From Hemileia vastatrix (taxonomy: Eukaryota; Basidiomycota; Pucciniomycetes; Pucciniales; Zaghouaniaceae), in the NCBI GenBank assembly GCA_030280995.1, contig JASXTE010000008.1, positions 4,669,001 through 4,733,000 on the forward strand: DNA of 64,000 nt, given 5' to 3'. Of this stretch, positions 1-54,341 are shown piece after piece (within the stretch, counting starts at the first letter, position 1; each line of letters starts with the position of its first letter). Below the pieces are notes generated by a model. The model was not told where the DNA came from and did no database searches. It saw nothing but the letters and a program-made list of their open reading frames with translations. Position numbers and translations under genes: made by a program.

Positions 1-145
1 ATGATAGTACCCACATACCCGCAGACCCAATATCCACGGAATAAAACCAGAAAAATACCAAATTCCTTAACAGATGTCAATTAAGACATGCACAAACAGC
101 GCCAAATCACACAACAAAGGCCCCTTCCAATGTTGGAAGACCACA
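1..145 (-). mobile_element. 3' LTR of element A (window-truncated)
   Basis: The reverse complement begins TGTGGTCTTCCAACATTGG and matches the start of the LTR at 10138-11495 (minus) and at 22596 (plus). Because element A reads on the minus strand, this is the first 145 bp (U3 side) of its 3' LTR; the rest lies outside the window. The purine tract next to it (146-160) confirms the boundary. Confidence 0.85.
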
Positions 146-160
146 TCCTCCCTCCAATTG
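146..160 (-). other. Polypurine tract of element A
   Basis: On the minus strand the sequence reads CAATTGGAGGGAGGA directly before the LTR start TGTGG. The same tract with one change precedes the 3' LTR of element B at 24171. Such a tract primes plus-strand DNA synthesis in LTR retroelements. Its conservation in two elements defines the LTR edge. Confidence 0.8.
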
Positions 161-193
161 AGAATGTCCGCATTCTTTCTTCATCCAACCACC

Positions 194-834
194 ATGTTTA
201 ACCTCCTTCCCAAATCTGCCTCTGAAATGCTCCCCTGCCAATACTGCATCAACAATAATTTAATCTGCGCCATAACACCACCTGTTCATCCATACAGAAC
301 GTGCTGCGATGTCTGCCACTCCAGAAAGAAGACCTGCCACAGACCTGGTCCACTTTCTTCCACAACAGATTCACCTCTGCCTCAACCTGGTCCTTCTTCT
401 GCCAGCACCAAAAGATCTAGGCCATCCATCCTGATACTCAGATTAATCAAAAAACTCCACCCTTCCCAGAAGAGTGCCACAACCCATAAAACAACTAGTT
501 CCCCCATCCCTGGTTCATCTGATGGTAAAGAAAATTCATTCCTTCCTTCAACTTTAAAACTGATAACTTCTCAGTTCCTTCCTCTTCTGATAGTGATGAT
601 AACAATGTAGGATCCATTGCACCACCAACACCAATGCACTTTCCCACTATCAAGGCCAAGTTCCAACAACACACATCTCAACAGAGACAACTTCTGCTTC
701 ACTATTTCCAATCCACTCCTGCTAGAGATCCACAGGACATTTAGAACAGAAGACACCTCATTCACCAGTTCAAGGCTAATTCTGAACACTTCATTTCATC
801 TCTTGATTCCCTCTGTAATTCCACTAGTACTTGA
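194..834 (+). pseudogene. Antisense Zn(II)2Cys6-like gene of element A, two exons, one nonsense codon
   Basis: Read opposite to gag-pol, starting 49 nt inside the 3' LTR edge. Exon 1 (194-524) has a fungal-type binuclear zinc cluster at about residues 17-48: C-x2-C-x6-C, a 12-residue linker, then C-x2-C-x6-C with basic residues (CHSRKKTC) in the second half. A 50-nt intron (525-574, GTAAAG...TTCTCAG) joins in phase to exon 2 (575-834), which encodes a helical-looking segment with LHYFQSTPA and a later RRHL. The equivalent gene in element B has the same exon order, cluster position and a YFQETPA / RRIL segment; predicted lengths are 196 and 202 residues. A TAG at 742-744 interrupts exon 2, so this copy is probably dead. 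Zn2Cys6 proteins are normally DNA-binding regulators; that role here is inference. Splicing is predicted, not observed. Confidence 0.65.
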
Positions 835-889: not shown

Positions 890-1345
890 AACCCTCAGTT
901 TTAAGTCTTGGGGGACCATCCTCATCTTATAGTCTTGGGGGACTCAAAAACCCTCAGTTTAAAGTCTTGGGGGACTCAAAAAACCTAAATCATAAACCCA
1001 GAACCAGAGATCAACCACATTAAGACACAGAGAAAAAACTAACATTCTGGGGTAATTGTGAATAGAGCAGCCAGCCTATCAATTACCCCCAAACTTGGCT
1101 TTGCAAAATTCGTAGGCTCCCCCTGCGGATACCCTCCACCAATCATTCAAACCAACTCCAACAACAAAACCCTTTTTCCTCAGTTTATAGTCTTGGGGGA
1201 CTTACAAACCTCAGTTTAAAGTCTTGGGGGACTAACACAGTGTTCAGTATAAAGTCTTGATGGACTGACTTGATACCAAAGCTTTTCAGTTTAGAGTCTT
1301 GATGGACTGATAAAATTTCCAGTTTAGAGTCATAGAGGACTGTCA
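890..1345. repeat. Degenerate 22-nt motif cluster (element A 3' region)
   Basis: At least eight copies of a motif close to CAGTTTAAAGTCTTGGGGGA, near 897, 929, 955, 1181, 1212, 1246, 1287 and 1319, with irregular spacing. The same motif recurs at 2919 and 3177, forms a larger array in element B (25570-26400), and is translated as a protein repeat inside both polyproteins. It is not a simple tandem array. Confidence 0.75.
1049..1089. other. Conserved stem-loop, copy 1
   Basis: Ten-nt arms GGGGTAATTG and CAATTACCCC pair perfectly around a conserved loop containing AGAGCAGCCAGC. The same structure is at 27236-27276 (identical stem) and, with a paired C-G substitution in the stem, at 3009-3050. 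Function unknown. Confidence 0.65.
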
Positions 1346-1488: not shown

Positions 1489-2060
1489 ATGTCTGGATCC
1501 CCTGCTGTGGACTCCTCTACTCTTCCTTGCTTCACTGCTCCAAGGGACTATGCCTGAAAACAGTGCATCCACATGTGCAGACCTTGCACATTCACTCTTC
1601 CAAATCCAGATCCAAATTCTACAACTGGGCTTGTGACTCTTGCTATTCCAAAAAAAAGAAATGTGACAGAGATGCCCACTATCCGATTCCTCCGCCTTCT
1701 CCTTCTCACAAGTACATCTCCAGATCCCCTACCAGGTCTCCAGAACTTGGTCCATCCTCTTCCTCTCTATCTTCAGCTCCTTCCAGAAGATCCAGAAGCT
1801 CAGCTTCCTGTACTCTTCCCAAAAGACCAGCCTTAGCTTCTCAAGAAACTGCTTTTATCACTTCTAAATTAGCTCCAAAAGCTTCAAAATCAACCCCTAG
1901 GCTTCTAGACCGTGTCCAGGCGGCCCGCCCGCCTCACCAAACAGTGAAAATCAGGGCCAAAACCTCCAAAAACGGCCAGAAAATAGCCGAATTCATCCAG
2001 ACAACAATAACAACTCAACCCAATTACCTTCTACTGCTCCCAGAGAAATGCAATCCCTGA
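1489..2060 (+). pseudogene. Second antisense zinc-cluster gene copy, frameshifted
   Basis: A second, more damaged relative of the gene at 194-834, on the same strand and in the same 3' region. The second half of the cluster is intact (CDSCYSKKKKCDRD, C-x2-C-x6-C, about 1633-1675) and is followed by a Ser/Pro/Arg-rich tail like that of the first copy. The first half is spread over two frames: an ATG at 1489 leads to LPCF and then a TGA, while the frame carrying the second half has CSKGLC. At least one indel is needed to explain this. I could not recognise the exon-2 segment downstream. The ORF includes a 20-bp GC-rich stretch (about 1919-1940) that matches the GC block of the A LTR. Confidence 0.5.
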
Positions 2061-2870: not shown

Positions 2871-2918
2871 CACCACCAATCTGAAAGAACCAAAGATAAA
2901 GAAGCCAGTCCCAAACCA

Positions 2919-3410
2919 GTTTAAAGTCATAGCGGACTTGAAACCTGAATAATAAAGAACAGAACTAGAATTCAACTAGGAAAAACAAAGACTTGAAACA
3001 GACATTATGGGGTAACTGTTCTACAGAGCAGCCAGCTCATCAGTTACCCCCACACTTGCCAAAAAAAAATCTAGAAGCCCCCCCTGGGTACCTTCTAACA
3101 AAAACACAACATTTGACACAAAAAACCAAAACCAATAAGAGTGAAGAATCTGGTACTTGAAAGCCAAAGGAAATTCCAGTTTAAAGTCATAGAGGACTAA
3201 AACCTGTGAAAAGAAACCAATACTAGGGTTCAACCAAATTAAGAAAAAGGGTTGGAAACAGACAATCTGGGGTAACTGTTGATAGAGCATCCAGCCCATC
3301 AGTCACCTCTACACTTGCCAAGATCAAATCTAGAAGCCCCACCCATAGGTACCCTCTAACAAAAGTTTCCAACAAACAGATGCATAGCATCCCCACAAAA
3401 AAAACCAAAA
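2919..3410. repeat. 258-bp tandem duplication with stem-loop copies 2 and 3
   Basis: Two tandem units start near 2919 and 3177. Each contains the 22-nt motif, then the stem-loop (3009-3050 with arms GGGGTAACTG and CAGTTACCCC; 3269-3309 with an imperfect right arm), then a conserved ACTTGCC... and a C-rich tail. Element B has one such unit around 27146-27320 and element A has a more distant one around 1049. Confidence 0.65.
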
Positions 3411-3446
3411 CTAAAGAATGGTCCGTAGTTTATCCTCATTGCGGAG

Positions 3447-4904
3447 TCAATCTTCTTCATGCCTAGTGCCTCTGGGATAAAACCTCTTCACTTGGTCTGC
3501 AGCCACCCTCTTTTTCAAGACTGCACCATCCAACTCTTCCAAAACATAAGAACCTCCAGACGCCTGAGATCTGACTCTGTAAGGTCCATTCCATCTGTCA
3601 GCAAACATTTTGCCCCACTGACTCTCCAAACTTCTATTATACACCAAAACCAAACAACCAGGTTTCAAGGGATTCCTGAGTCTATGAGCCAACTTCTTGT
3701 CCCAGAACCTGACTGATTGATTCCTAATCTTCATCATTCTAGAGTATGCCTTCTCTTGACATCCCTCTCTACATTCCAACTGTTGCATCCTGGCACAGAG
3801 CAAATCTTCTGTTGAGTGCACGTCATCCCAATCGATTCCAAGATAAGAGACAGCTTCCAAGTCCACTGGTAGAACGGCTTTCTGACCAAACATTAACTCA
3901 TAATGAGAATAGCCAGTTGTCCTCTTCACAGTTACCCTATCCGCAAATAAAACAAAGGGTAAATAATGCCTCCACTTTTTGGCACTATCTCCACACATCT
4001 TCACCAAAGCATTCTTGATAACTTGATGGCCTCTTTCAACCATGCCTTCAGCTTCAGGATAAAACGGTGTAGCCACTCTAACCCTAGAACCAACAGTAGC
4101 CACAGCTTCTTTAAATTTGGCACCAAACTCTGGCCCACCATCAACAGTGACCAACTTCATCAACCCATACCTATAAATCCACTCCTTCTTCAAAAACTCT
4201 GCCACATTCTTGGCAGTCAAATTAACCAGAGGCACTGCCTCAACCCAACCAGACAAATCATCCCTAGCAACAATCAAGTATTTATACCTGCCCTCTTTAA
4301 TATGGACAGCATCCAGACTGACCCTTCCAAAAACAGTTGATTCACCAGTAGCACAGCCCACCTCTTTAGGTTTCAAGTGACTTCTTCTTTGACATTCTTC
4401 ACAAGATTGAACCCAACCCTGCACAGCCAACTTCATACCCTGCCACCAAAATCTGTCCGCTACTCTTCTATAAGTCTCCCCAAAGCCTCTATGACCAAGG
4501 TCTTCATGCAAAGACTTCAAAACCAATTCTTGACCCTTCTTCTGAGTCACCACCACTTGAGGATTAGGATGTCTCCTTCTCATCAAGCACCTTCCTGACA
4601 CATAAAATACAGGACTCTTCTTCTTGATTGCCAACCAAGTATCATCATCACAAATATCTGGCCTCTCCAAGGTCAACAGATATTCCACCAAAATAAAATA
4701 AAACCCAGATTGACCCCAGGTCTCATCTTCAAAATCCAACAAAGCAACATCCAAGGGTACAACTCTGTCATCAAAATCACCAGTGTGAAAATGGGCCAAT
4801 TGAGCAGCCCAACCAGGACACCAATCCTTAAATTTTGGCATGTCCTTCTCTTTCCACTGAACCTTGTGAGAATTCAGTTCACTAACAAAAACACCCTTTT
4901 CCAA
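3447..4904 (-). CDS. Integrase region of element A polyprotein
   Basis: An open 485-residue segment that would be the C-terminal end of Pol. It contains an HHCC zinc domain (HEDLGHRG...CEEC) and a catalytic core with VSLDAV, VTVDGGPEF and EGMVERG as the D, D, E motifs; I count 34 residues between the second D and the E, and the usual HPQTDG is replaced by YPEAEG. A GPY/F module (WNGPYRV) follows, and the protein ends GTRHEED without a chromodomain. Element B has a close homologue. A stop just upstream separates it from the RNase H segment, so in the element this domain would need readthrough or is disconnected by mutation. The integrase would insert element cDNA into host chromosomes. Confidence 0.85.
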   Translation of the reverse strand: MEKGVFVSELNSHKVQWKEKDMPKFKDWCPGWAAQLAHFHTGDFDDRVVPLDVALLDFEDETWGQSGFYFILVEYLLTLERPDICDDDTWLAIKKKSPVFYVSGRCLMRRRHPNPQVVVTQKKGQELVLKSLHEDLGHRGFGETYRRVADRFWWQGMKLAVQGWVQSCEECQRRSHLKPKEVGCATGESTVFGRVSLDAVHIKEGRYKYLIVARDDLSGWVEAVPLVNLTAKNVAEFLKKEWIYRYGLMKLVTVDGGPEFGAKFKEAVATVGSRVRVATPFYPEAEGMVERGHQVIKNALVKMCGDSAKKWRHYLPFVLFADRVTVKRTTGYSHYELMFGQKAVLPVDLEAVSYLGIDWDDVHSTEDLLCARMQQLECREGCQEKAYSRMMKIRNQSVRFWDKKLAHRLRNPLKPGCLVLVYNRSLESQWGKMFADRWNGPYRVRSQASGGSYVLEELDGAVLKKRVAADQVKRFYPRGTRHEED

Positions 4905-6748
4905 TTATGAGCTGGCCCAAACAACAACTCCATCTTCATCAACAAAAACATCCTGATCACCGGAATCAAGATCAGATCCAGCCAGTTTAACCTCTTGGAG
5001 GAGGTCAGAACAATCATCCAGTTTAGCCTCATGGGGGAGGAAAGAAAAATCCTCAGAACCCTTTGTGCTGGGCCTAATCACTGGAACATCTTCGTCAAAC
5101 TCTTCAGAATCAGAATCCTCATCTGTAGGTGGCCTCCTTGATAACCCATCAGGCATAGTAAAAGTTTACCTGGTTTGTGTACCAGGTCAAAAGAAAAATG
5201 TTGAATAAGTGCCACCCACCTAGTCATTGGAGCATTTGGAATACTAGGTGTGTTGATCATCTGAACCAAAGATTTTGCATCCACCTGCAGCTCAAAATGC
5301 TGCCCCCACAGAACCGTCTGTAGCTTCTTTAAAATTTTAGCTATGCCACACAATTCCAACTTAGGTTGAGAATACCTAGATCCCACCTCATTAAACACCA
5401 CAGACTCATACCTTACTGGCCTGACCCTCCAAGTCTTATCCTCCTGAGACAAAACAGCACCAGCAGCAATATAGCTTGAGTCCACTGCCAGATAAATCTT
5501 TCCAGCACCAACACCATAATCCAACTTGTGAAGAATTATATCTTCACCAACAACCTTTTTCAGCTTCTGAAAATCCTCTTCACACTCTTCCGTCAATTCC
5601 CAATCTGCATCTTTTCTGGTCAACCTTCTTAAAGGTGAAGCCAACAAATAAAAATCCTTAATGAAAATCCTGACATATACACATACACCCAAAAATCCTC
5701 TGACTTCAGTGGTATTTTTAGGCCTTGGCCATGCCTGAATTTTATTAATCTTCTTCTTCGCCATAATCCTTCCCTCTTTACATACCACATGACCCAGAAT
5801 TTCAAAAGCAGGAACGCAAAAACAGAATTTTGACCCTGAAATGGTCAAACCAGCCTCTTCAATCCTGAACAACACTCTCTCTAGAGTTATTGCATATTCC
5901 CACACAAACCTCCTTATTCCAGGGTTCTCCGATAACACCTTATTACCATAATCAGTGGATGGTCCTTTAATTCCACCATCATCAATAAAAATACCAGCAT
6001 GAGTAGGAACCTCATCCTGCAAAATCCAAGCCATCTGTGCTTGATAAACTGCCACTGAATTACTTGCTCCTTGAGGCAACCTAGTGAACTAAAATCTTCC
6101 CAAAGGAGTCTCAAAAGTCGTGAGAGGCCTTGAATCCGTATGGAATTCCCTCTCATCATAACCACCCATAATATCACCCAAACCATAACACACCCTTCCA
6201 GCAATAGCTTCAACGAAATCCTCTGCACTTGGCGGCATACCAGCGTCCTTGATAGTGACTCTATTCAAGGCTCTAAGATCATGAACCACCCTTAACTTTC
6301 CATTCTGCTTATTTAAACAGAAAACCAGACTTGAGTAACTGTATGTTTATTGTTCATATAACCCAGTCCTGACTCTTTCCCTAACATTCTCCACAAAATC
6401 CTCTCTGATAGCAGCTGGAATCGGAATAGGTTTGATTTGCCAAGGTTCATGACAAAGCACAGGAATCAAGTAAGGTTCCCCATAAGAGTGCTTCAATACA
6501 TCCCTTTCCTCCTCAACAAATGCCACAGCTATTTCCCTTAGCACAATAACGTGCAACAACAACTTCTTTTCTTCTTCAGACAACCACCCATCAGGACCAA
6601 AATTAACAACTTTCAATCTTTCCACAGTCACCCTAGGCGTCTCTACAAATTCTGGGGGATTCTTCACCAAGAGAGTACAGTACTGATCTCTTGAAAAAGG
6701 AGGTCTCTTAAAAGGTAGATTCAAGCCCACAGGAATAGGCTCATTCAC
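4905..6748 (-). pseudogene. RT-RNase H region of element A, broken
   Basis: The region reads, 5' to 3' on the minus strand: the RT entry segment ending GLYEQ (6347-6748), then VHDLRALNRVTIKD and a YGLGDIMGGYDE stretch holding the first catalytic Asp (6089-6289), then GIFIDDGG, the FIDD form of the YxDD active site, and RNase H-like sequence with LAVDSSYIAAGAVLSQ (5078-6079). It ends in HKPGK...DGLSRRPP, the usual RNase H/integrase tether, where the frame shifts near 5160. Stops near 6346 and 6080 and the frameshift make it non-functional as it stands. The tether (4905-5156) contains two copies of the translated 22-nt repeat (LPHEAKL, LLQEVKL). Element B lacks this whole block. Confidence 0.8.
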
Positions 6749-6799
6749 AGGCCTAATCTTCTGTGCTCCCTTCTTATACTTTTCCGCTCCACCTTCAAC

Positions 6800-7666
6800 T
6801 TAAGGGATCTTCAGAAATTCTTCACCACCAGACCTGGAACAAAAACCAAGGGTTTCCCCATTGCTCACATGTGTGGCCAAGGTAATGTTTTTGAAAGGTG
6901 TAGAAGAAACCCTAATGGTGCACAATTGGGAGGAATTACTTTTACACCCCAATCTCACCACTCCAAAACTTTTCCGCAATTCCACATCTTCATCATCACT
7001 TCCAACTTCCAAATCTTCAAATCTTGATTCATCTTCTGAATCACATCTTCTAAAATTGTGCAGTTTATCCTCATGCTGGAGGTCCAAAAATTGATCTTGA
7101 TGATCTTCTTTCTTCAAAATTTTCTGCAGTTTAACCTCATGCTGGAGGCCCAAAAATAGATCTTGACGATCTTCACAAAAATATTTTGCATCTTCTTTCT
7201 TCAGTATCTCCAGATTTTTTTCGTGATTTTCATGAATTATCTTGAAATTTTTATCTTCTTTTCGTGAGTTTTCATCTGATCTACAAAAATAACCAGGGGT
7301 TTCCCCAATTCTCACAGGTGTGGCCCAGGTTATGTTTTTGAAAGGTGTAGAAGAAACCCTAGCGGTGCACAATTGGGAGGACTTACTTTTAGACCCCAAT
7401 CTCACCGCCCCAAAACTTTTCCACATATCTTTCAATAAAGATATATAACTAATCTTCTTCTTTGAACTTGAATTAAAAATAATTAAGAATCTTGAGAGAG
7501 ATCAGAGACTTGATAAAAAACTTGATGAATACTTTCAGAGAAGAGAAACATTAAAAAGAGAAAGTTGAAAATCCACTTGGTATATCTCCAAGGGAGCTGA
7601 CCTACTACAACCTGGGATTTCCTCATGTCGGGGAGAGGTTTTAGCACTAGGTTGATCAGCCCTCCT
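6800..7666 (-). pseudogene. Protease-RT linker of element A with internal duplications
   Basis: Pol-frame segment between the frameshift site and RT. The readable part (6800-7435) holds two copies of a roughly 125-bp unit (about 6855-6980 and 7295-7420), encoding SSQLCTxRVSSTPFKNIT twice. Between them lie FLGLQHEVKLQ and FLDLQHEDKLH, translated forms of the 22-nt motif. Several stops precede 7435. Element B keeps a shorter version (FLDLQQEVKLQ, ILDLQQEGKLQ). No enzymatic motif is visible; it looks like a low-conservation spacer. Confidence 0.6.
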
Positions 7667-7678
7667 TACTCTAAAAAA
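7666..7678 (-). promoter_or_regulatory. Candidate -1 ribosomal frameshift site, element A
   Basis: On the minus strand the gag-protease frame reads TCT TTT TTA GAG TAA. The heptamer T TTT TTA (7678-7672) is a classical slippery sequence placed one codon before the stop. Slipping back by one base enters the frame encoding FFRVRRADQ, which aligns with FFGVAGADH in element B, where T TTT TTG GGG TAG occupies the same place. Conservation of heptamer and stop position in two diverged elements supports a real -1 shift. This copy has an upstream TGA near 7768, so it is not usable here. Confidence 0.6.
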
Positions 7679-7767
7679 GACAGACTCTTAATAGAGCCTG
7701 AGCCGCACTCCAAAAAACCAGAGGAAGCACCCACTTCTTTCCTTCTCTTGAAACAATCCATGCACTC

Positions 7768-8604
7768 TCACATTGAAGATAAACCAGGCGTGGTCTCCCA
7801 ACCATCCACTCCAGGGGATGATAACCTCATGTGAAGTCTCCTTTCATATTCACCAGTCAACTCTAAACTGATTCCCAAATCAAATTGATAACCAATTCTT
7901 GCCTGAAAATCCATCAAAAATGGCCCACCCAAAACTGCTTTTACATTACCTTTAGCAATGTAAAAATGAACCTTCCCTGAGGCTCCTCCAACATCTAACT
8001 TCACAAACTCAGAAGTTCCAACCAATTCAGTGACATGGCCACCAATCCCTCTCAAATTCCCACCAATACCAGTTTTGATGGGGAGGCCCAAATGAGTTGC
8101 CTCAAACAAAGAAATCAGGTTTATCTAAGAACCTGAATCCACCAATGCCCTTGCCTCCCTGCCATTCAGAGTGACATTGACATATCCCAGAGGAGCAGAA
8201 AAATGATTTTCCAACCCCTCACCAAACTTTTCAGCAGAATCACAAATGTATTCTACCTCACCAGAAGAAACCCTTCTCCTGGTCAACAACTTCTACTACC
8301 TATAAGTAAACCCTGGACTGATAGCATACAATTCCCCATAAGATAGGGAAACCTGACCCTGGTTCATCCTTTCCAGGACAGAGTCCATAACATTAACTTG
8401 ACCAGACACTACTGGCCTCTCAAAGTGATCTCTTTGCATCACCACCTTGGTCCTAGAAGATTCTTGAGGACCAGCACCACCAACAGATTTACCATTAACA
8501 GGAACCAAACCAGATCCCTCACCAGAACCTCTGACTCCAACAGGCTTTGGCAATGAAGCCAAAGGAACATCCTCCTCAAAGTCAGAATCCACCTCCATTG
8601 GCAT
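7768..8604 (-). pseudogene. Protease region of element A, broken
   Basis: Continues the gag frame. The N-terminal part (8296-8604) is the acidic Gag-protease linker. An aspartic protease follows around 8120-8160 with ALVDSGS, but the next codon is a stop where element B has Gln. The remainder (7768-8109) contains IGGNLRGIGGH and VLGGPFLMDF, matching B closely. The catalytic DSG triad is therefore intact in A but followed by a nonsense codon; there are also stops near 8295 and 7768. The enzyme would process the Gag-Pol polyprotein in the particle. Confidence 0.75.
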
Positions 8605-8607
8605 TGT

Positions 8608-10047
8608 TCACCATTCAGGTTTTAATGCACCAAAACTAGGGGGGCCCTTGTCAGCCATACCTTTCTGCATCTTGTACAGATCCTCTTTGCTGTACCTTTT
8701 CCTAGCTGCACTCAGCTTAGGATCACCCTTTGAAGCATTTGGCTTTGGTTGGGCCTGAGAACTTCTCTTAGGCCTACCAACCTTCCCTGCTTCCACATCA
8801 TAAACACCAGCCAAGAATTCACCACTTGACTGTCCACCACAAGAATACAACTCCAAACCACCAAAGGAAGTAGAAAAAGAGACCTTATTGACCTCCTTCC
8901 CCTTTCCCTTGATGTCCTCATCTACCTTAACAGAAGACTTCCCCTGATCAGCAATCTCCTCAAAGCTTGGCCTCCTTTGATTGAGACCACCCCTTCTCCT
9001 AACCAAATCAACAGGAGCCTGCCCCTCACTGGGCTTCACATAAGAACTGTCAGGGAACATAAAAACCCTGCCATCAAACTCCACTTTTCCTTCAGACACA
9101 TCTCTGTTCAGTGCCCAAAAATCATTGGACCTGTTCCCCCTCCTACTGCAATAAGAGCAAACCCAAGGATCACTCCTACCAGCCCTCCTTTCAAAATCTC
9201 TTGGCTGAGAAGGTGCCTTATTAACCTTCTTGGCCTCCTGGACAAAAATGTGCAGCTGTTTTGTCAGATCAGCCAAATGCTCCACCATTGGGTCCCTCTC
9301 CTGTTTGGGAACCTGCACCAAATTCTTCTCCTCCTTCTTCTCCCTAGCTTCCTCTTCAGCCAAAGCCTCACTGACTTTGCTGACATACTTGGCACACCCC
9401 TCCTGATAGGTGTCCACAGCCAATAACTTTAAATGGGCCTCAACAGCCTCCTTCACCTTATCTAAGGCAGGCAACTTCTGGTCCACATTAGAAAGAGTTT
9501 TCATCAATTCATTTCTTGACAACTCCTTCAACACATCCATCCTGACATCTCTAGCCAGGTCAGACCAAAAAACATCTTTGGCAGCATTTTCATGTGCCAG
9601 CTCCTCCACTTCCACCAAATATTCCACCACAGGATCAAACTGTAGCAGAAACTTTCTGTAACTATGTAAGTTACCAACACCACCATAAGATTGCCATTCA
9701 CTGACAACCTTGTTCAGATCCACCATAGTGAACCTGACACCCCATCTATCCACCATCTCCCTACACAACAATTTCCAATCCCTCTTCTTGTAGCCAGACA
9801 TGGCCACAATCTCCTTCTCCACTGACCTATCCCCAATGAAGAAGATAATCTGCTTCACCATGTCCAGGTAGGAAGCACCATCCACTCCAGAAGCAGTTTC
9901 ATACTTCTCTAGAAACCACTTGACATCCTCCCCATTAAACTTGGTACCATCCCAAGTTTTAATTCTCACACACTCCCTAACCATCACAGAAGGAAGACCA
10001 TCCCCCCCACTGACAGTCACCACAGGAATAGCAGAACCAGAAGCCAT
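8608..10047 (-). pseudogene. Gag of element A
   Basis: About 480 residues from the ATG at 10047 (MASGSA), chosen because B and A2 align from an equivalent position; an in-frame ATG at 10068 also exists. It contains a Retrotrans_gag-like core (IKTWDGTKFNGEDVKWF...YETA) and a CCHC knuckle region that is degenerate here: CSYCSRRGNRSNDF has lost the His and the last Cys seen in B (CSYCNRRGHRATVC). A stop near 8606 separates it from the protease linker. Gag would form the virus-like particle and package the RNA. The reading frame is open, but the knuckle changes suggest loss of function. Confidence 0.8.
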
Positions 10048-10116
10048 TCCTCCAGACCAAAACACCAAAAAGAGCCAACCAAAGCAAACAGAGATTCCAA
10101 AGAACTAGCAAGTTCA

Positions 10117-10137: not shown

Positions 10138-11495
10138 TGTAGACAATCCTATAGTACTAGCTATAGGCCTTGACCAAGGGAGTTGGAGAAAAACCAGAGA
10201 GAAAATCCCCTGTCCCTTTAGAAAAATAGAGTGAGATTTACTTGCTAAAGTAAGTTGGTTCCTGTTTTGCTAAAGACCCCTTTTAAACACACTTGACTGC
10301 TTGATGAGCCAAGAAAGTAGTCCCCAGATAGACTACCAGTCCAAAGAACTGAAATGTAGAACAGAGTCCACACCAGAGACAGCAAAGATACTTGATGTAG
10401 GCTGCAAATCCACACCAGAGACAGCAATAATACTTGCTATAGCTTGCAAGACTATAACAGAGAAAACAGTTGCCAAAGTTAAGTTAAATGAAGAACTTAC
10501 TTGCAACAAACACAGCCAATTCTGGCCAGAAAACAGTGAAAACTGAGTGAGGAACAATGAGATCACCTCCGGATGGTTGTATGATGATTAAGGTTGCCCC
10601 AAACTGTCTTATTCACTATCAACACACAATATGGGGGGCGGACTTGCTAGCAAGTCCGCAACCTTGGACCCAAACTCACCATAGATTGAACACACATTGA
10701 GCTATTGATAAAGGAACCATACAATCAGGGATGAACACCACTCAGCAGAACAGTTTTAGGTGGGTGTTCAAGTAGAGTTCAGTATGGGTTCAGTCTGTGT
10801 TCAGTCTGAGTTCCATCTGAGTTCCATCTGAGTTCAGGTTGAGGACTTGCTAGCAAGTCCACCCCCTATATTGCGTAGTGTATGTACACACAGACCACTA
10901 ACTAAGAGTCCATGCGCACCAACCAATCTGGCGCCTGTACCTGCCAGATTGCATAAAAAACCCTCCTGGAGCACTCCCCAACCTCCTAAAACAGAGGCGG
11001 GCGGGCCGCCCGACGTCAGAGATGCTGCCTGAAGCGGTCCTGCCTCCCTGAAGCCAGAAAACCAATAAAAACCACTAATCTACTTAGAAAAACTAGCTAC
11101 AACTACTAAATCCTTTAAAACATGGAATTTCACGATAACAACATTGAGACATGAAATATAGAGAAAAATTAGCTCTATCAAATGGTACTAAGCACTTAAC
11201 CCTAAGAATTAAGGTTAGCCCATAAAACATGAAAAACAAAATTAAACAGCAATCTTTTATAAATGAAAAATGAGGAAATGACCCCTTAAAACTCAGAATA
11301 TGAAAAATGTCTCCAAGACATAAAATATAGAGAAAAACCAGGGCTATCCAATGATAGTACCCACATACCCGCAGACCCAATATCCACGGAATAAAACCAG
11401 AAAAATACCAAATCCCTTAACAGATGTCAATTAAGACATGCACAAACAGCGCCAAATCACACAACAAAGGCCCCTGCCAATGTTGGAAGACCACA
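10138..11495 (-). mobile_element. 5' LTR of element A (1358 bp)
   Basis: In element orientation it runs TGTGGTCTTCCAAC... to ...GATTGTCTACA, with TG...CA ends. The same sequence in A2 is divided between 22596-23075 and 33544-34141. Near 10992-11040 there is an isolated GC-rich block with CGG/CCG triplets (GGGCGGCCCGCCCG). Compared with A2 it carries an extra 257-bp insert at 10624-10880. The outer flank is ACGTC at 11496-11500; the partner copy lies outside the window. The hydrophobic ORF inside is judged fortuitous. Confidence 0.85.
10624..10880. mobile_element. MITE-like insertion in the A LTR, CACTA termini
   Basis: A 257-bp segment absent from the A2 LTR (junction near 33660). Its ends are CACTA... 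and ...TAGTG, and the inverted ends share CAATAT, a run of G and GGACTTGCTAGCAAGTCC, an 18-bp perfect palindrome that occurs once near each end. The interior (about 10764-10845) is a minisatellite of a 12-13 bp unit like GAGTTCAGTCT. No coding capacity. At the equivalent site A2 has three bases (CAT), so I cannot tell an empty site from an excision footprint, and no clean target duplication is visible. Confidence 0.55.
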
Positions 11496-22595: not shown

Positions 22596-23075
22596 TGTGG
22601 TCTTCCAACATTGGAAGGGGCCTTTGTTGTGTGATTTGGCGCTGTTTGTGCATGTCTTAATTGACATCTGTTAAAGAATTTGGTATTTTTCTGGTTTTAT
22701 TCCATGGATATTGGGTCTGCGGGTATGTGGGTACTATCATTGGATAGCCCTGGTTTTTCTCTATATTTTATGTCTTGTAGACATTTTTCATATTCTGAGT
22801 TTTAAGGGGTCATTTCCTCATTTTTCATTTATAAAAGATTTCTGTTTAATTTTGTTTTTTGTGTTTTAAAGGCTAACCTTAAGTCTTAGGGTTAAGTGCT
22901 TAGTACCATTGGATAGAGCTAATTTTTCTCTATATTTCTTGTCTCAAAGTTGTTATAGTGATATTCCGTGTTTAAAAGGTTTTAGTGGTTGTAGCTAATT
23001 TTTCTAAGTAGATTAGTGGTTTTTATTGGTTTTTTGGCTTCAGGGAGGCCAGGCCGCTTCAGGCGGCCCGCCCGC
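22596..23075 (+). mobile_element. 5' LTR of element A2, first part
   Basis: Starts TGTGGTCTTCCAACATTGG inside the Harbinger relic and matches the reverse complement of 11005-11495. It is interrupted by element B at 23076, in the GC-rich block ...GGCGGCCCGCCCGC; the LTR continues at 33544. The unbroken order of these two parts can be read in the A LTR around 10985-11005. Confidence 0.85.
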
Positions 23076-24170
23076 TATGGTAAGGTAAACTCTTACAGTC
23101 GCCTTTCTGTAAGCAGAATCCGGAGGAGATGTGTGGATTTAGCCGAAAACCCTGTCCTTCCAATAAAAATAACAAAATGGGAATTCTAAATCACTAAGCT
23201 AACCAATCTACTTGGATCTGATTGATGAAAATAATGAAACTCTAAAATATTTAACACTTATTGAGATTTAAATAAAAGTGGCTGTTGAGAAAAGAAATAC
23301 GGATAACAACAATTAAGGTGTACCAGTGAAAGATCTGAAAATATTGACTTTTATGTTTTTATAATAATTTGAATTTTTATGAGACAGCAATAATCAAGTC
23401 CCAGTGATGAAGACTTTTCTAAAGATACCCTGTATGAAGTGTGATTTAAATTGTTGAGTAGTATTTCTAAAATGTTATATATAAGATAAAAAGTTATAAG
23501 GGTATTACAAATTTATTTAATTTGTTGAGTAATAAAAAATGAGACCGTGGTGGTTAATAATTAAGCTGTATGATGTGTCCCCCCTCACAATTTCGAGTTT
23601 GAGAGGCGCTTAAGTATTCCTAGTCACGTGCCTAAGTTTTCCCCTCCAGAGCTCTCCCAGAGTCAAAGCGGAGTCCGTACGGAGTCCGTCCGGACTTCCG
23701 GACTCAATTAGAACCTTAAAACTATAATAAAAAATCTAGAAAAAATTACACGTAATAGAGCTACTTCCCCTTTACATACCAAACTATAAAATTTTCGTAG
23801 TCTGCGCAGCTCTAATTACCCCGTGAAAATTCATCAAAGTTAAGTAATTTCTGAAAACGTAAATATTTCTATAAAACTTTAAAATTCATTTAAAAATATA
23901 AGAAAAATAGTAAAAATTCTGGAAAAATTTGCCAAGGTTCTTGAGTGACTCGACTTAATACTTATAATATTTTCAGACCGTAAAAATAAGTTTTCTCCGT
24001 AAAATAAATTGTTTTTGTGTAGGCATTCTCTCGTGACCAATTTCTTCATATTTAAAAATCAAATAAATTAAATAAAACCCTTTTTTTATAAAAATAATAA
24101 CACCAATCTTGCATGCCGTAGTAACTCCATTTACGTACTTAGGTGCCATACTAAACTTTAGGCTACCACA
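23076..24170 (-). mobile_element. 3' LTR of element B
   Basis: In element orientation TGTGGTAGCC... to ...CCTTACCATA, 1095 bp, matching the 5' LTR at 32432-33543 at roughly 97% by eye. Differences include an 18-bp unit present only in the 5' LTR, in the GC-rich block. That block (23666-23705) contains CGGAGTCCGTACGGAGTCCG and is the only GC-rich part of the LTR. The left flank (CCGC) and the right flank of the 5' LTR (CTGC) may be a decayed target duplication. Confidence 0.85.
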
Positions 24171-24293: not shown

Positions 24294-24986
24294 ATGTCTT
24301 CCAAAGAACTTGTCGCTCCATGTGAACTCTGCGCTCGATACCAGGTACCTGGTTTAATGTCCAACCCTAATCTTCCTGGTAGGACAGCTTGCCACTTATG
24401 CCGTGTGAAAAAAGTCAAATGTAACCGGCCATTAGTTCCTTCTAAAACAAACGTATATTTAGGACCAGCAGCTCTCCCTGATCACTCAACTTCTAAAAAG
24501 CGATCAAAAATTCATGTCTTCTTAAAACGAATAAGATCAAAAGCAGCTTCAAAAGTTCAATTTTCATCAGCAGATCCCGGCCTTATTTTGCCTTCACAAG
24601 ATCCTAATCCTATAACGCCAGTGCCCCCAACCAACTTTTCTGAGACTATGTTTCCTGGCTCTAAATGTAGGACCCTATTATCTTACTAAAAAAAACTTTT
24701 AATCAAAATTTGACTAAACCTATGACTTAATAACATATTTGAACTTCTAGCTGTTGAAATAACCAACACTGATGATGTTGGTAGATTGAAGATGGACTAT
24801 ATCAATCATTATCCAAATTTTCATCGCTATCTTTTTCTTGACTTTACTAATGAGTTGAAACGAAAAATGCTGGCCTATTTTCAAGAAACTCCAGCTAATA
24901 ACCATGAAGACCTCATGAAAAGAAGAATTTTAATGCAAAGCTTTGATAATGATGTTGAACAATTTCAAAGAAATTATCTTTTCTAA
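24294..24986 (+). CDS. Antisense Zn(II)2Cys6-like gene of element B, two exons
   Basis: Lies opposite to gag-pol, 124 nt from the LTR edge, at the same place as the gene in element A. Exon 1 (24294-24666) encodes PCELC and then CHLCRVKKVKCNRP, the second half of a zinc cluster; the third Cys of the standard six is Gly in this copy. An 84-nt intron (24667-24750, GTAGGA...CTTCTAG) restores phase exactly, forming a TCT codon across the junction. Exon 2 (24751-24986) encodes MDYINHYPNFHRYLF, LAYFQETPA and MKRRILMQSF, similar to exon 2 in A (LHYFQSTPA, RRHLIHQF). The predicted product is 202 residues and no stop interrupts it. A DNA-binding role is suggested by the cluster only. Alternative view: exon 1 alone (131 residues) is the product. 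Confidence 0.65.
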
Positions 24987-25569: not shown

Positions 25570-26400
25570 AACCAGTTTAGAGTCTTAGTGGACAGTTATA
25601 AATTAAAAGATTGAATTGAGTTATCCAAACAAGATTGACATTCCAATTTAAAGTATTGGTAGACCAAACATATAATCGATTGCCAGTTTATGGTCTTGGT
25701 GGACCAAAGATCGTTTAGGTGCATAAATAACTTGATAAATTCCTAAGTAAGGCCTAGGATTGACCAAAGATTGAATAAATTTGATAATCCAGTTTAATGT
25801 CATAGTGGACCAAACATTTGATAGACAAGTAATCCAGTATAAGGCCATAGTGGACCAATGAATGTTGAATTATCCTGCAGATATTAATTTTCCAGTTTAA
25901 AGTCATAGTGGACTAAAAAATGAGTGAACTACCAGTTTAAAGTCATGGTGGACCAAACATTTAATCGATAAGAAATCCAGTTTAAGGTCATGGTGGACCC
26001 AAAAGCTTGATAATAGTCCAGTTTAGGGTCTTGGTGGACCTAACATTTGATAACACTCCAGTTTAAGGTCATGGTGGACCTAACATTTGATTTATAAAAA
26101 AAAAATCCGTCTCCAAAAATATCCATAAAATCTTGATCATACTTCAAATTCAGTTTAAAGTCTTGAAGGACTAACAGCTCCAATATAAAATTTTTAATGA
26201 GAGTCTTGAAAATTAGCCAGTTTAAAGTCTTGGAGGACTAAAAGCTCTGAAATTCGTATAAAACCCTTAAGGAAAGTCTTGAACAGTAGCCAGTTTAAAG
26301 TCTTGGAGGAATAACAGATCCAAAATACATATAAAAAAACCTTAAAGAACGTCTTGAAAAGTAGCCAGTTTAAAGTCTTGGAGGACTAACAGATATCTTG
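25570..26400. repeat. Array of about 14 degenerate 22-nt motifs (element B 3' region)
   Basis: Copies of CCAGTTTAAAGTCNTGGNGGAC occur near 25572, 25641, 25682, 25789, 25833, 25890, 25931, 25977, 26018, 26059, 26151, 26217, 26290 and 26366, spaced unevenly by about 40-110 bp. Variation is concentrated at fixed positions (CTT/CAT, GTGG/GAGG). Another copy is at 27146. The same motif is translated as DLQQEVKL in the polyprotein of this element. Confidence 0.8.
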
Positions 26401-26820: not shown

Positions 26821-27320
26821 GCCCCCCGCCCATTTGATGAGCCGTACCCTCAACATCATACCCACATCCAAGTGCAACTTGATGTGGTTACACAATTTTG
26901 AGAAATTGAAAAGAAAATAAAATAAATGAAAGTTTTTAGAAGATAAATTTTATAATGATGATCACTGGGTGGGATCCCTCCAATTAATAAAAATGATTAG
27001 AGACCACCAGTGAGCATCACCTTTGCAATAATTCATAATATATATTTAAAGGAAAGAAATCACAATCTAGCATAAAAAAATCAAAAACAAAATAAAATAA
27101 AAAAATTTTGAATCCGGCGTTGAGAGCGGTGTCTCTTGATTCGTTCCAGTTTATAGTCTTAGTGGACTTCCTATAATTAAAAGACAAAGCCAGGATTTAA
27201 CTAGAAACTGGGAAAATTTTGGAAATGAACATTATGGGGTAATTGTGTATAGAGCAGCCAGCCCATCAATTACCCCCACACTTGCCAATATTAAATTAAG
27301 AAGGTTCCCCTGTGAACACT
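26821..27320. repeat. Conserved hairpin block of element B
   Basis: Contains, in the same order as element A, the CCACATC/GATGTGG hairpin (26862-26887), the GATCACTGG/CCAGTG hairpin (26960-27014), one copy of the 22-nt motif (27146) and the GGGGTAATTG/CAATTACCCC stem-loop (27236-27276) with the loop AGAGCAGCCAGC. Flanking sequence is diverged while these features are kept. Confidence 0.65.
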
Positions 27321-27479
27321 TCTTCCAATAAATTTTAAAAATTTTCCAACACTATCTTCGCCCATATTTTAAGAATTTTAAGTTTTTGAAAATTTCAAAG
27401 AAGGTCTTCTTGAATTTTGTTAAGTTTCATCATAGTTTCGTCACCCATATGCAGTGTAACGACAGTAAAGTATTTTGAT

Positions 27480-27605
27480 AAAAAGAAGATAGTTTATCCT
27501 CGTTGCGGAGGTATCCATAAAATTTTGTAGATATCATAGTTTTTCTCATTGCGGAGGAATCCATAAAATTTTGTCGATATTATAGTTTATCCTCATTGCG
27601 GAGGA
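27480..27605 (-). repeat. Three copies of AGTTTATCCTCRTTGCGGAGG at the integrase 3' end
   Basis: Near-identical 21-24 nt units start around 27489, 27538 and 27584; the last overlaps the integrase stop codon, so the protein ends FLRNEDKL. Element A has one copy at the same place (about 3427). They look like another variant of the dispersed 22-nt motif. Confidence 0.65.
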
Positions 27606-29709
27606 AGACTTTGGCACTCCTGGTGCCTCTAGGATAGAACCGTTTCACTTGATCGGCTGCTACCCTCTTCTTTAATACTACTCCATCCAACTCTTCTAAC
27701 ACATATGAACCGCCAGAAACTTGCTCCTTAACATTATACGGTCCATTCCACCTATCTGCAAACATTTTTCCCCACTGACTTTCCAAACTCCTATTATACA
27801 CCAGGACCATATCACCTGGGCTCAAAGGTTTCCTTAATCAATGTGCCAACCGCTCATCCCAATATCTGACTGATTGATTTCGGATCTTCATCATCCGCAA
27901 ATATGCCTTTTCTAAATATTCTTCTTTCTTTTCTAGCTGCATCATTCTTGCACACAATAATTCTTCAGTGGTTTTGACCGTGTCCCAGTCAACTCCAAGA
28001 TATGATTCAGCTTCTAAATCAACCGGTAAAACTGCTTTCTGTCCAAAAACAAGTTCATAAGGTGAAAATCCGGTCGTCCTTTTGGCAGTGATTCGATCAG
28101 CAAATAAAACTGAAGGTAAATAGTGCCTCCACTTTTCAGCACTGGTCCCACACATTTTAACTAAAGCATCCTTGATAACTTGATGCCCTCTTTCAACCAT
28201 GCCTTCAGCATCAGGATAATATGGGGTTGCTACCCTAACCTTTGATCCAACTTTCAATACGGCCTCTTTAAACTCTGTCCCAAATTCAGGACCTCCATCT
28301 ACCGTCACCAACTTCATCACCCCATACCTATATACCCAATTATTCAACAAAAATTCTGCCACATTTTTGGCAGTTAAATTAATAAGAGGCGCTGCCTCTA
28401 CCCAACCAGATAAATCATCTCTGGCCACAATTAAATATTTATACCGTCCCTCTTTTATATGAACGGCATCTAAACTAACTCTTCTAAAGAGCGTATATTC
28501 ACCGGTTGCGCGTCCAGGTTCTTTTGGCCTTAAATAACTTCGTCTTTGACATTCTTCGCATGACTGAACCCACTTTTTAACAGCCATCTTCATGCCAGGC
28601 CACCAGAATCGATCAGAAATTCTTCTAAACGTTTCTCCAACGCCTCTATGCCCAGGATCTTCATGCAGTGATTTCAAAACTAATTCTTGCCCCTTCTCTT
28701 GAGTTATAACTACTTGAGGATTTGGATACCTTCTCCTCATTAAACGTCGACCTGATAGGTAAAACGTAGATGACTTCCTCTTGATTGCCACCCATTCATC
28801 GTCTTCACAATCTTCTGGCCTCTCTAAAGTCAACAAATATTTAACTAACAAAATATAAAAACCAGTCTGACCCCAGACTTCATCTTGAAAATCGATTAAT
28901 ATAACATCAATAGGGACTTCTCTATCACCAATATCACCTGCACATGAATGAGCCAATAATCGTTGACCCCTAAATAAATCTTTAATCGAGATTTGTCGAC
29001 GTTTTTCTTCTGAACCTTTGGATCCTTCGTAAACCGTATTTGAAAATACCTCTTTCTCTTTATCCACCTTTTTATTTAAGTTCTCTAATTCTCCAACATA
29101 TACACCATTCCTTAATTTACTACTATCCCACACTACCAATCCATCTTCCTCTACATACACCACATCTTCTTCTACCTCCTTTCTACCAAATTTATCTACA
29201 CCTTTTCCAACACCTTTATTAACATAAAAACTATTTTCCAGTTTATCCTCTTGGTGGAGGTCCGGAAATGAATTTTCACAAAAATTATTTTTTTGTGTTT
29301 TAATTATACTGAGATTTTTTATTGGACTTTGATAAGATTTTTGCAGTTTACCCTCTTGCTGGAGGTCCAAAATAGAAGGAGATACTTGCAGTTTAACCTC
29401 TTGCTGGAGGTCCAAAAAGATACCCTTCCAATTTTTATCCAACCTAATTTGGCCCAATTTGCCTTTTTCACCATTTTTAAATTTAATAGAAAAACAGGGT
29501 AAATCCAATAAACATATAGAAAAGTCCATAACGTATTTGCACTCCAAAGTAATATTAACAGAAAATAATTGAGAATCCACTTGAATTATCTCCAAGTGAG
29601 CTGACCTATTGCAATCCGGGATCTCATCCTGAGGAGAGATTACAACATTAGAGTGATCAGCCCCTGCTACCCCAAAAAATGAGGGCATCCATCCCTTTCC
29701 AACAAACAT
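27580..29709 (-). CDS. Element B Pol lacking RT/RNase H: linker plus integrase
   Basis: Reached from the gag-protease frame by the -1 shift at 29673-29679. An N-terminal spacer with FLDLQQEVKLQ, ILDLQQEGKLQ and FPDLHQEDKLEN repeats leads directly into VYVEEDGLVVWDSS, which in element A comes after RT and RNase H. The integrase follows: HEDPGH...CEEC zinc domain, DAVHI / TVDGGPEF / GMVERG catalytic motifs (34 residues between the last two acidic residues by my count), and a WNGPYNV module. One TGA at about 27836 replaces the Arg codon seen in A (AHRLRNP); otherwise the frame is open to FLRNEDKL. Loss of RT with an otherwise clean frame suggests mobilisation by another element. Confidence 0.85.
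29667..29680 (-). promoter_or_regulatory. Candidate -1 ribosomal frameshift site, element B
   Basis: The gag-protease frame reads CAT TTT TTG GGG TAG; the heptamer T TTT TTG (29679-29673) precedes the stop by one codon. The overlapping integrase frame is -1 relative to it and starts matching element A right here (FFGVAGADH). Element A has T TTT TTA GAG TAA at the same point. I did not find an obvious pseudoknot by eye. Confidence 0.6.
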
Positions 29710-32255: not shown

Positions 32256-32412
32256 CCCAATAAGTAATGAAAAGCGTTAACAATCGATAAAATAACAAGC
32301 CTCTTGCAGGCCAATAACAAAAATCCAATTAGAGTTCCAGAAAATAAGCCTCTTGCAGGCTAATAACATTCTTGATCCAAGTAAGTCTTTAAAGAAAGCT
32401 AGAGAAATTGTA

Positions 32413-32429: not shown

Positions 32430-32431
32430 AC

Positions 32432-33543
32432 TATGGTAAGGTAAACTCTTACAGTCGCCTTGCTGTAAGCAGAATCCGGAGGAGATGTGTGGATTTAGCC
32501 AAAAACCCCGTCCTTCCAATAAAAATAACAAAATGGGAATTCTAAATCACTAAGCTAACCAATCTACTTGGATTTGATTGATGAAAATAATGAAACTCTA
32601 AAATATTTAACACTTATTGAGATTTAAATAAAAGTGGCTGTTGAGAAAAGAAATACGGATAACAACAATTAAGGTGTACCAGTGAAAGATCTGAAAAGAT
32701 TGACTTTTATGTTTTTTTAATAATTTGAATTTTTATGAGACAGCAATAATCAAGTCCCAGTGATGAAGACCTTTCTAAAGATACCCTGTATGAAGTGTGA
32801 TTTAAATTGTTGAGTAGTATTTCTAAAATGTTATATATAAGATAAAAAGTTATAAGGGTATTACAAATTTATTTAATTTGTTGAGTAATAAAAAATGAGA
32901 CCGTGGTGGTTAATGATTAAGCTGTATGATGTTTCCCCCCTCACAATTTCGAGTTTGAGAGGCGCTTAAGTATTCCTAGTCACGTGCCTAAGTTTTCCCC
33001 TCCAGAGCTCTCCCAGAGTCAAAGCGGAGTCCGTACGGAGTCGAAACGGAGTCCGTACGGAGTCCGTCCGGACTTCCGGACTCAATTAGAACCTTAAAAC
33101 TATAATAAAAAATCTAGAAAAATTACACGTAATAGAGCTACTTCCCCTTTACATATCAAACTAATTTTCGTAGTCTGCGCAGCTCTAATTACCCCGTGAA
33201 AATTCATCAAAGTTAAGAAATTTCTGAAAATGTAAATATTTCTATAAAACTTTAAAATTCATTTAAAAATATAAGAAAAATATTAAAAATTCTGGAAAAA
33301 TTTGCCAAGGCTCTTGAGTGACTCGACTTAATATTTATAAAGTTTTCAGAACGTAAAAATAAGTTTTCTCCGTAAAATAAAGTGTTTTTGTGTAGGCATT
33401 TGCTCGTGACCAATTTCTTCATATTTAAAACTCAAATAAATTAAATAAAACCCTTTTTTTATAAAAAAAATAACACCAATCTTGCATGCCGTAGTAACTC
33501 CATTTACGTACTTAGGTGCCATACTAAACTTTAGGCTACCACA
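32432..33543 (-). mobile_element. 5' LTR of element B (1112 bp)
   Basis: Pairs with 23076-24170. The GC-rich block (33016-33082) has one more CGGAGTC unit than the 3' LTR. Its right edge TGTGGTAGCC borders CTGCCTCTG, the continuation of the split A2 LTR. Confidence 0.85.
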
Positions 33544-54339: not shown

Positions 54340-54341
54340 AC

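What the first reader, a model, noticed from the sequence alone, without database searches (positions are those of the whole stretch)
194..834. Spliced zinc-cluster gene running antisense inside an LTR retroelement (element A)
Exon 1 has exact Zn(II)2Cys6 spacing (C-x2-C-x6-C-x12-C-x2-C-x6-C) on the strand opposite to gag-pol, next to the 3' LTR. Exon 2 joins in phase through a 50-nt GT-AG intron. The matching gene in element B (24294-24986) has the same layout, a different intron length and a similar size (196 against 202 residues). Two diverged elements keeping cluster, intron position and exon-2 motif (YFQ-TPA, RR-L) argues for a selected gene, not chance. An antisense regulator encoded at the 3' LTR recalls antisense genes of some retroviruses, but I know of no described fungal equivalent.
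Basis: partly seen in the sequence, partly recalled or inferred. Interest (0 to 1): 0.9.

Follow-up and report, generated by a model that had tools for sequence, protein, structure and literature searches.

The report
Backward zinc-protein gene in fungal retroelements
Two distantly related jumping elements in what looks like a rust-fungus genome both carry a small extra gene that reads backwards from one end and encodes a cysteine-rich protein with no relative found, beside dozens of repeated hairpin sequences; a similar layout has been described in plants.

Summary
The observation mostly holds. Translations of 194-834 (element A) and 24294-24986 (element B) match each other only in the claimed antisense frame, in both exons (0 of 2000 shuffles each), with almost no nucleotide similarity, at the same place beside the 3' LTR. 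An ancestral antisense protein-coding gene is well supported.

Corrections: A's exon 2 has an internal TAG (742-744), so A is a broken copy. B is open (202 aa) but lacks the third cysteine; the shared core is C-x2-C-x19-C-x2-C-x6-C, not a full Zn(II)2Cys6 cluster, and Pfam scores are below cut-off. Splicing is inferred only. B lacks RT-RNase H.

New: A and B carry 35 copies of a 22-nt motif (34 in the consensus scan, 0.2 expected), in one orientation, that can form a 4-bp hairpin with compensatory arm changes.

Closest known: plant Retand elements (antisense ORFs of suspected DNA-binding type plus repeat arrays between pol and 3' LTR). My paper searches listed no fungal equivalent, and two protein searches no relative. 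Best reading: an antisense nucleic-acid-binding accessory regulator; its function is inferred. The whole-genome test could not be run.

The parts
194..524 (+). Element A antisense gene, exon 1 (110 aa; C-x2-C-x6-C-x12-C-x2-C-x6-C, then a basic/Ser-Pro-rich stretch)
   Evidence: homologous to B exon 1 in this frame only
525..574 (+). Inferred 50-nt GT-AG intron of the A gene, with a CTGAT branch-like motif near -15
   Evidence: inference, no transcript data
575..834 (+). Element A antisense gene, exon 2 (YFQSTPA, RRHL motif); internal TAG at 742-744, final TGA at 832-834
1490..2060 (+). Second, decayed copy of the antisense gene's exon-1 module in element A: CRPC at 1576 and CDSCYSKKKKC at 1632 lie in different frames; no exon-2 match found
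   Evidence: similar to A exon 1 (score 75, 0 of 500 shuffles), weakly to B exon 1 (28 of 500); Pfam Zn_clus 14.1 bits, below cut-off
1..145 (-). Inner end of element A's 3' LTR (identical at 143 of 145 positions to 11351-11495)
146..177 (-). Presumed polypurine-tract block of A between the 3' LTR and the antisense gene, similar to B 24165-24202
   Evidence: 94.7% over 38 nt, 140-177; the name is inferred from composition and place
11024..11495 (-). Element A 5' LTR (inner end not exactly placed)
896..1341 (+). Hairpin motif array of element A, 8 copies, between the antisense gene and its decayed second copy
2917..3447 (+). Three more hairpin motif copies of A (2917, 3177, 3426)
4983..7148 (+). 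Four hairpin motif copies of A in the pol region (4983, 5019 between RNase H and integrase; 7061, 7127 upstream of RT)
3426..10104 (-). Element A gag-pol region, interrupted by several stops: RT-RNase H and integrase found by profile or tblastn, gag/protease only by DNA similarity to B
24294..24666 (+). Element B antisense gene, exon 1 (C-x2-C-x19-C-x2-C-x6-C)
24667..24750 (+). Inferred 84-nt GT-AG intron of the B gene, at nearly the same place in the protein as in A
   Evidence: inference
24751..24986 (+). Element B antisense gene, exon 2; predicted three-helix domain
23075..24170 (-). Element B 3' LTR
   Evidence: 95.5% identical to 32431-33543
32431..33543 (-). Element B 5' LTR; a presumed TGG-type primer-binding site follows on the minus strand (no tRNA comparison made)
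25573..26387 (+). Hairpin motif array of element B, 14 copies (one of them, 25644, only at three mismatches)
27147..27604 (+). Three more hairpin motif copies of B (27147, 27490, 27583)
29239..29410 (+). Three hairpin motif copies inside B's integrase-bearing ORF, which reads LQQEVKL, LQQEGKL, LHQEDKL across them
27838..32276 (-). Element B gag-protease and integrase ORFs; reverse transcriptase and RNase H not found
27226..27284 (-). Larger conserved hairpin block of B (10-bp stem), matching A 1039-1097, 3000-3058 and 3260-3318

Best explanation
A and B are diverged members of one Ty3/gypsy group that inherited an accessory gene on the antisense strand between pol and the 3' LTR. Shown here: two homologous coding exons at the same place in both elements, open in B and broken in A. 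Inferred: the gene is transcribed from an antisense promoter in or next to the 3' LTR, loses one short intron, and yields a protein of about 200 aa with an N-terminal cysteine-rich basic zinc-binding module and a C-terminal helical (probably self-associating) domain. Inferred: the protein enters the nucleus and binds the element's own DNA or RNA, regulating its transcription or RNA fate as an accessory regulator, as proposed for antisense proteins of plant Retand/Grande elements and as reported for retroviral HBZ. The hairpin motifs, found in this window only in A and B, are the best candidate target, but nothing tested here links them to the protein.
For: Frame-specific similarity in both exons with 0 of 2000 shuffles reaching it, nucleotide similarity near nil. 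Same position and strand relative to LTR and pol in two elements. A third decayed copy of the exon-1 module in A. Cysteine motif with a basic C-x2-C-x6-C half resembling Zn_clus (17.3 bits, sub-threshold) and a helix spanning each C-x2-C in a low-confidence model. Exon 2 predicted as three helices at pLDDT 81 from one sequence. 34 hairpin motifs against 0.20 expected, all 34 inside A and B.
Against: No transcript, promoter or protein evidence. Only two elements and no other genome copies could be examined; the genome search did not complete. A's copy is broken. Codon usage in the claimed frame scores above the other two plus-strand frames for each of the four exons, but is topped by two minus-strand frames in each A exon and is only marginally ahead in B exon 2. 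B's openness alone is weak evidence, since its LTRs are still 95.5% identical. The third copy matches B exon 1 only weakly (28 of 500 shuffles reach the score) and no exon 2 was found for it. No sequence or fold match in the PDB supports DNA binding.
Confidence: 0.5

Rival explanations
1. The antisense coding gene is real and conserved, but its product is not a regulator of the element: it may be a captured host gene or an accessory protein for structure or nuclear import of the pre-integration complex.
For: Function is not tested by any search. A plant review also discusses nuclear import of the pre-integration complex (PMC7264820 section 7). The predicted exon 2 is a generic helical bundle.
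Against: No homologue in the protein database: none at E <= 10 among 20 candidates or 476 candidates, though these searches need shared 5-residue words. The cysteine/basic module is of nucleic-acid-binding type (inference).
Confidence: 0.25
2. The region is only a relic: an accessory gene once coding in the ancestor, now decaying in both elements, with antisense RNA (if any) acting as a noncoding regulator.
For: A has an internal stop and a frameshifted second copy. B lacks RT-RNase H, and its integrase ORF ends at 27838 although similarity to A and to relatives runs on to about 27583-27622. Fungal TE-antisense lncRNAs are described in Blumeria (PMC10648671, search listing only).
Against: B's 202-aa frame is open in both exons; aligned A-B codons differ most at third positions (105, 86, 116 of 180 at positions 1, 2, 3), which speaks for past selection only.
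Confidence: 0.18
3. The similarity is chance: cysteine-containing low-complexity ORFs that happen to resemble each other.
For: ORF lengths alone are reached by 6 of 1000 (B) and 13 of 1000 (A) shuffles. Pfam hits are sub-threshold.
Against: Both exons match in one frame only; 0 of 2000 shuffles, also with cysteines fixed; same locus in two elements.
Confidence: 0.04
4. About the motifs only, not exclusive of the others: the hairpin motifs work without the antisense protein, for example as Gag-binding/packaging or dimerisation signals on the sense RNA, or as recombination hot spots.
For: Compensatory arm changes and four G-U cells on the sense strand; copies in the pol region. B's missing RT lies where A has motif copies on either side, consistent with a deletion between repeats (inference).
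Against: In this window the motif occurs only in the two elements that have the antisense gene, but with n = 2 this cannot separate the hypotheses.
Confidence: 0.45

Closest known systems
Plant Retand lineage of Ty3/gypsy elements (TRP28 antisense ORFs), also Grande gene23, RIRE2
   Same: Long pol-3'LTR region; antisense ORF(s) there of suspected nuclear/DNA-binding type; arrays of short repeats in the same region in about half; some members non-autonomous (PMC11963269 abstract, passages and Discussion; PMC7264820 passages and section 7).
   Different: Plant hosts; TRP28 (PF04195), SMC or other domains instead of a cysteine module; no Pfam match to these here. In the parts I read, the repeats are called tandem arrays and no compensating hairpin is mentioned.
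Retroviral antisense genes (HTLV-1 HBZ; HIV-1 ASP)
   Same: Antisense gene under 3' LTR promoters (PMC10186651, abstract and outline); HBZ has a spliced mRNA (PMC6237760, search listing).
   Different: HBZ is a bZIP protein; no bZIP match here; antisense transcription and splicing are shown there, only inferred here.
Steamer-like element MchSLE-1 of a mussel (animal LTR retrotransposon with an antisense mRNA)
   Same: An LTR retrotransposon with an antisense mRNA (PMC10974842, search listing only).
   Different: Animal host; I saw only the title and the start of the abstract, so what the mRNA encodes was not compared.
Fungal Zn(II)2Cys6 binuclear cluster transcription factors (PF00172)
   Same: Basic C-x2-C-x6-C half and, in A only, all six cysteines.
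   Different: B has five cysteines, the basic half comes second instead of first, scores are below Pfam's cut-off.
Ty3/gypsy elements of Pucciniales (Puccinia, Austropuccinia)
   Same: Of 109 proteins matching B's integrase part, the rows named as rust fungi are 40-62% identical and unnamed metagenome rows reach 63%.
   Different: The motif-coded peptide was found in 0 of 110 proteins examined (109 hits plus P0001); whether these relatives carry an antisense gene could not be examined (proteins only).

Membership tests
Zn(II)2Cys6 cluster (PF00172) | Six cysteines, C-x2-C-x6-C-x5~12-C-x2-C-x6~9-C (spacing recalled) | tested here: not met
   Present in A only; B lacks the third Cys and the third copy has no Cys at that place
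Zn(II)2Cys6 cluster (PF00172) | Pfam gathering score (21 bits) | tested here: not met
   17.3 (B), 14.9 (A exon 1), 14.1 (third copy)
GATA-type zinc finger | Cysteine spacing C-x2-C-x17~20-C-x2-C (recalled) | tested here: met
   C-x2-C-x19-C-x2-C in A and B
GATA-type zinc finger | Profile match | tested here: not met
   No GATA family listed at E <= 1 for the B protein or A exon 1
Ty3/gypsy LTR element | LTRs and gag-PR-RT-RH-IN order | tested here: met
   A: LTRs, RNase H and integrase by Pfam, RT by sub-threshold Pfam and by tblastn with relatives at 62-70% identity; gag/protease of A only by DNA similarity to B. B: LTRs, protease and integrase H2C2 by Pfam, RT-RH missing
Plant Retand lineage | Antisense ORF and repeat arrays in a 2.9-6.6 kb pol-3'LTR region | tested here: met
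   About 3.3 kb (A) and 3.4-3.7 kb (B) with antisense gene and motif arrays
Plant Retand lineage | TRP28 domain (PF04195) in the antisense ORF | tested here: not met
   Not listed at E <= 1 for the B protein or A exon 1
Plant Retand lineage | RT phylogeny within Retand | not tested
   No tree was built; the named integrase rows nearest to B are rust-fungal
HBZ-type retroviral antisense gene | Transcription from an antisense promoter in the 3' LTR, spliced mRNA | not testable with these tools
   No RNA-seq available
HBZ-type retroviral antisense gene | bZIP domain | tested here: not met
   Only Zn_clus listed at E <= 1 for the B protein

The most novel reading that the evidence does not exclude
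A fungal retroelement lineage carries a self-contained trans-acting control module: a spliced antisense gene driven by the 3' LTR encodes a new type of cysteine/helical protein that recognises the lineage's own family of covarying hairpins (noncoding 3' array plus copies embedded in the pol region), and so sets RNA fate or transcription of both autonomous and RT-less copies, a fungal counterpart of Rev/RRE-like or HBZ-like systems that arose independently of the plant and retroviral ones.
Probability: 0.15. Interest if true: 0.85.

Novelty: new variant of a known kind. Interest (0 to 1): 0.6.

Why it matters
Antisense accessory genes beside the 3' LTR are known in plant Ty3/gypsy elements and retroviruses, with mostly unknown roles in the plant cases. 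A further, apparently independent case in fungi, with a different protein and with motif arrays in the same interval, would suggest that this interval repeatedly evolves an antisense nucleic-acid-binding gene plus repeated sites. The hairpin motif gives a concrete candidate target, so an open question (what these antisense proteins and 3' arrays do) becomes testable.

Tried and rejected

Related loci: integrase of B and alignment A2 in viral contigs, A2 in genome contigs, A1 in both: 1, 50, 10, 67 and 78 pattern matches, no confirmed relative. Hairpin pattern in viral contigs: 0. Rfam: one sub-threshold match, MIR8024 at 901-990 with 27.7 of 57.3 bits, over the repeats, treated as chance. Codon-usage test: weak, not used as support. 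Chance-ORF explanation rejected. Full Zn(II)2Cys6 membership rejected (B lacks a Cys).

Hairpin rows: one search listed 48 rows at up to three substitutions; I kept 35 and dropped 13 (all with three substitutions, both strands, scattered, none with four Watson-Crick arm pairs); 25644, also with three, was kept because it lies in B's array. Two of the five covariation measures do not exceed shuffles (pairs changed on both sides, 496 of 500 reach it; further pair types, 429 of 500), as can happen with only four pairs. The strand is left open: G-U cells favour the sense RNA in the short motif, but the larger block has one G-U and one unpaired A-C cell on that strand, and 4 of the 35 motifs folded on both strands are weak (-1.6 to -4.5 kcal/mol, several no better than shuffles).

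Full report
What was checked. The window (64 kb, 34% GC) is dense with LTR elements. Self-comparison gives element B as 23075-33543 on the minus strand (LTRs 95.5% identical; a presumed primer-binding site beside the 5' LTR). Element A is also on the minus strand: its 5' LTR includes 11024-11495 and its 3' LTR runs off the window's left edge, ending at 145 (143 of 145 nt identical to the 5' copy). A and B share integrase DNA at 75.8% (27583-28938 against 3426-4781) and gag/protease stretches at about 70%, so they are diverged relatives. Of 109 proteins matching B's integrase part, the rows named as Puccinia striiformis, P. coronata or Austropuccinia psidii are 40-62% identical, and unnamed metagenome rows reach 63%. 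The host is therefore probably a rust fungus or close kin; this is inference.

The antisense gene is real at the level of the sequence. Exon 1 of A (194-524) and of B (24294-24666), and exon 2 of A (575-834) and of B (24751-24986), align with scores 92 and 86 in the claimed frames; every other frame pair, on both strands, scores 32 or less. None of 2000 shuffles reaches either score, also with cysteines held in place. The nucleotide local score is only 24. The protein alignment has 55 identical residues in 180 aligned codons, and mismatches are commonest at third codon positions (105, 86, 116 at positions 1, 2, 3). Both genes start just inside the 3' LTR (48 and 123 nt from it), after a presumed polypurine block that is itself conserved (140-177 against 24165-24202, 94.7%). 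The inferred intron interrupts both proteins at nearly the same point, just after PGS.

A's exon 2 contains an in-frame TAG at 742-744. B lacks the third cysteine, leaving C-x2-C-x19-C-x2-C-x6-C as the shared core. Pfam's Zn_clus is reached only below its cut-off; in B the match is the second, basic half, aligned to the first half of the model, and in A exon 1 it is the first half, aligned to the second half of the model. A third copy of the module lies at about 1490-2060 in A with its cysteine pairs in two frames; it resembles A exon 1 (0 of 500 shuffles) more than B exon 1 (28 of 500), and no exon 2 was found for it. Splicing is not shown: the A intron has a CTRAY-type branch motif and the B intron has none.

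The protein. No relative was found in a 5.8-billion-sequence database with B alone or with an A+B profile. These searches need shared 5-residue words, so distant relatives may be missed. A single-sequence model of B exon 1 is poor (pLDDT 57) but puts a helix across each C-x2-C. B exon 2 is predicted as three helices with pLDDT 81, with no specific fold match. A nucleic-acid-binding head plus a helical association domain is the natural inference, not a result.

Hairpin motifs. Searching around the gene showed a 22-nt motif, CAGTTTANNSTCWTNNNGGASN on the plus strand. The window holds 34 matches with at most two mismatches, against 0.20 expected from 100 shuffles; all 34 are on the plus strand and within A or B. 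One further copy with three mismatches in B's array makes 35 (15 in A, 20 in B, where 13 other three-mismatch rows were dropped). On the sense (minus) strand it reads as a 4-bp stem with a 6-nt loop followed by TAAACTG. On 32 distinct rows, 96.1% of 128 pair cells are paired (shuffled mean 75.6%, 0 of 500 as high) and the covariation score is 0.487 (shuffled 0.135, 0 of 500); the best slid versions give 46.9% and 0.284. Two further measures, pairs changed on both sides (2) and further pair types (5), do not exceed shuffles (496 and 429 of 500). Arm types AGTC/GACT, GGTC/GACC and CCTC/GAGG give two positions with compensatory change. Copies are related by duplication, so cells are not independent events. 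Four intermediate cells are G-U on the sense strand. Against a strong RNA reading, the four motifs folded are only weakly stable on either strand.

Where the motifs lie. Seven of the 35 copies lie in the pol region: 4983, 5019, 7061 and 7127 in A, and 29239, 29344 and 29389 in B. Five of these lie in two open reading frames and read as a repeated L-Q/H-Q/H-E-x-K-L peptide on the sense strand; a third frame tested had none, and the stretch holding 4983 and 5019 was not translated. In A, 4983 and 5019 sit in a stretch of about 0.3 kb between RNase H and integrase where the four relatives compared (P0013, P0014, P0017, P0044) have only 8-26 residues. Larger blocks in the same 3' interval are also conserved: a 10-bp hairpin in four copies (97.5% of cells paired) with one compensatory pair, not significant on its own (68 of 500 shuffles) though the B copy folds better than most shuffles (2 of 200 sense, 10 of 200 antisense as low), and a CCACATC...GATGTGG hairpin in three copies.

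State of the elements. B has no detectable reverse transcriptase or RNase H: an RT-RNase H probe from another element of the window and four relatives find it in A (25% and 62-70% identity) and not in B. B's antisense gene nevertheless stays open. A keeps RT in pieces but its antisense gene and the second copy are broken.

Comparison with print. Plant Retand elements have antisense coding regions in the pol-3'LTR interval in all clusters (97% with the TRP28 domain, predicted to bind DNA), tandem repeats there in about half, and non-autonomous members (PMC11963269: abstract, passages and Discussion read). Antisense ORFs of Grande, RIRE2 and Retand are reviewed in PMC7264820 (passages and section 7). 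Retroviral antisense genes use 3' LTR promoters (PMC10186651, abstract and outline). Searches showed no fungal retroelement with an antisense protein gene, judged from titles and abstract openings of 20 of 61, 20 of 20, 20 of 65, 2 of 2, 20 of 113, 20 of 198 and 20 of 53 papers; Blumeria antisense lncRNAs (PMC10648671, listing only) are the nearest fungal item. Most subscription papers are outside this library.

Verdict. An ancestral antisense coding gene in a fungal Ty3/gypsy lineage is well supported (about 0.9, my estimate). That it is a regulator acting on the element is the best guess (0.5), and the specific pairing with the hairpin motifs is a bold but unexcluded reading (0.15). It is a new variant of a known kind of architecture with an apparently new protein.

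Noticed in passing
896-7148 and 25573-29410: 35 copies of a 22-nt compensating hairpin motif in one orientation, in this window only in elements A and B, five of them inside open pol-region reading frames
   Followed up: yes
1039-1097, 3000-3058, 3260-3318, 27226-27284; 2368-2446, 2564-2643, 26816-26896; [quoted passage not shown]
   Followed up: partly
28938-29548: Element B has lost RT and RNase H (about 2.1 kb less than A between protease and integrase) while gag-protease and most of integrase stay open; possible deletion between motif copies
   Followed up: partly
22596-23067, 23075-33543 and 33546-36042: B appears to be nested near the 5' LTR of another A-family element in opposite orientation (A-type LTR on one side, A-type gag region on the other)
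   Followed up: partly
11761-19350, 38694-45095, 56612-61146: Three copies of another Ty3/gypsy family (75-91% identical stretches); of the ORFs scanned with Pfam, only 56682-58199 showed a chromodomain
   Followed up: no
36078-37932 and 51250-54340: Tandem blocks of about 0.6 kb and of about 0.7-1.2 kb
   Followed up: no
21933-22034: A chance tblastn row shows a frame reading GFVDGTTIPLSQKPAYYGNHYFDFK, which from memory resembles a DDE-type (Harbinger-like) transposase
   Followed up: no
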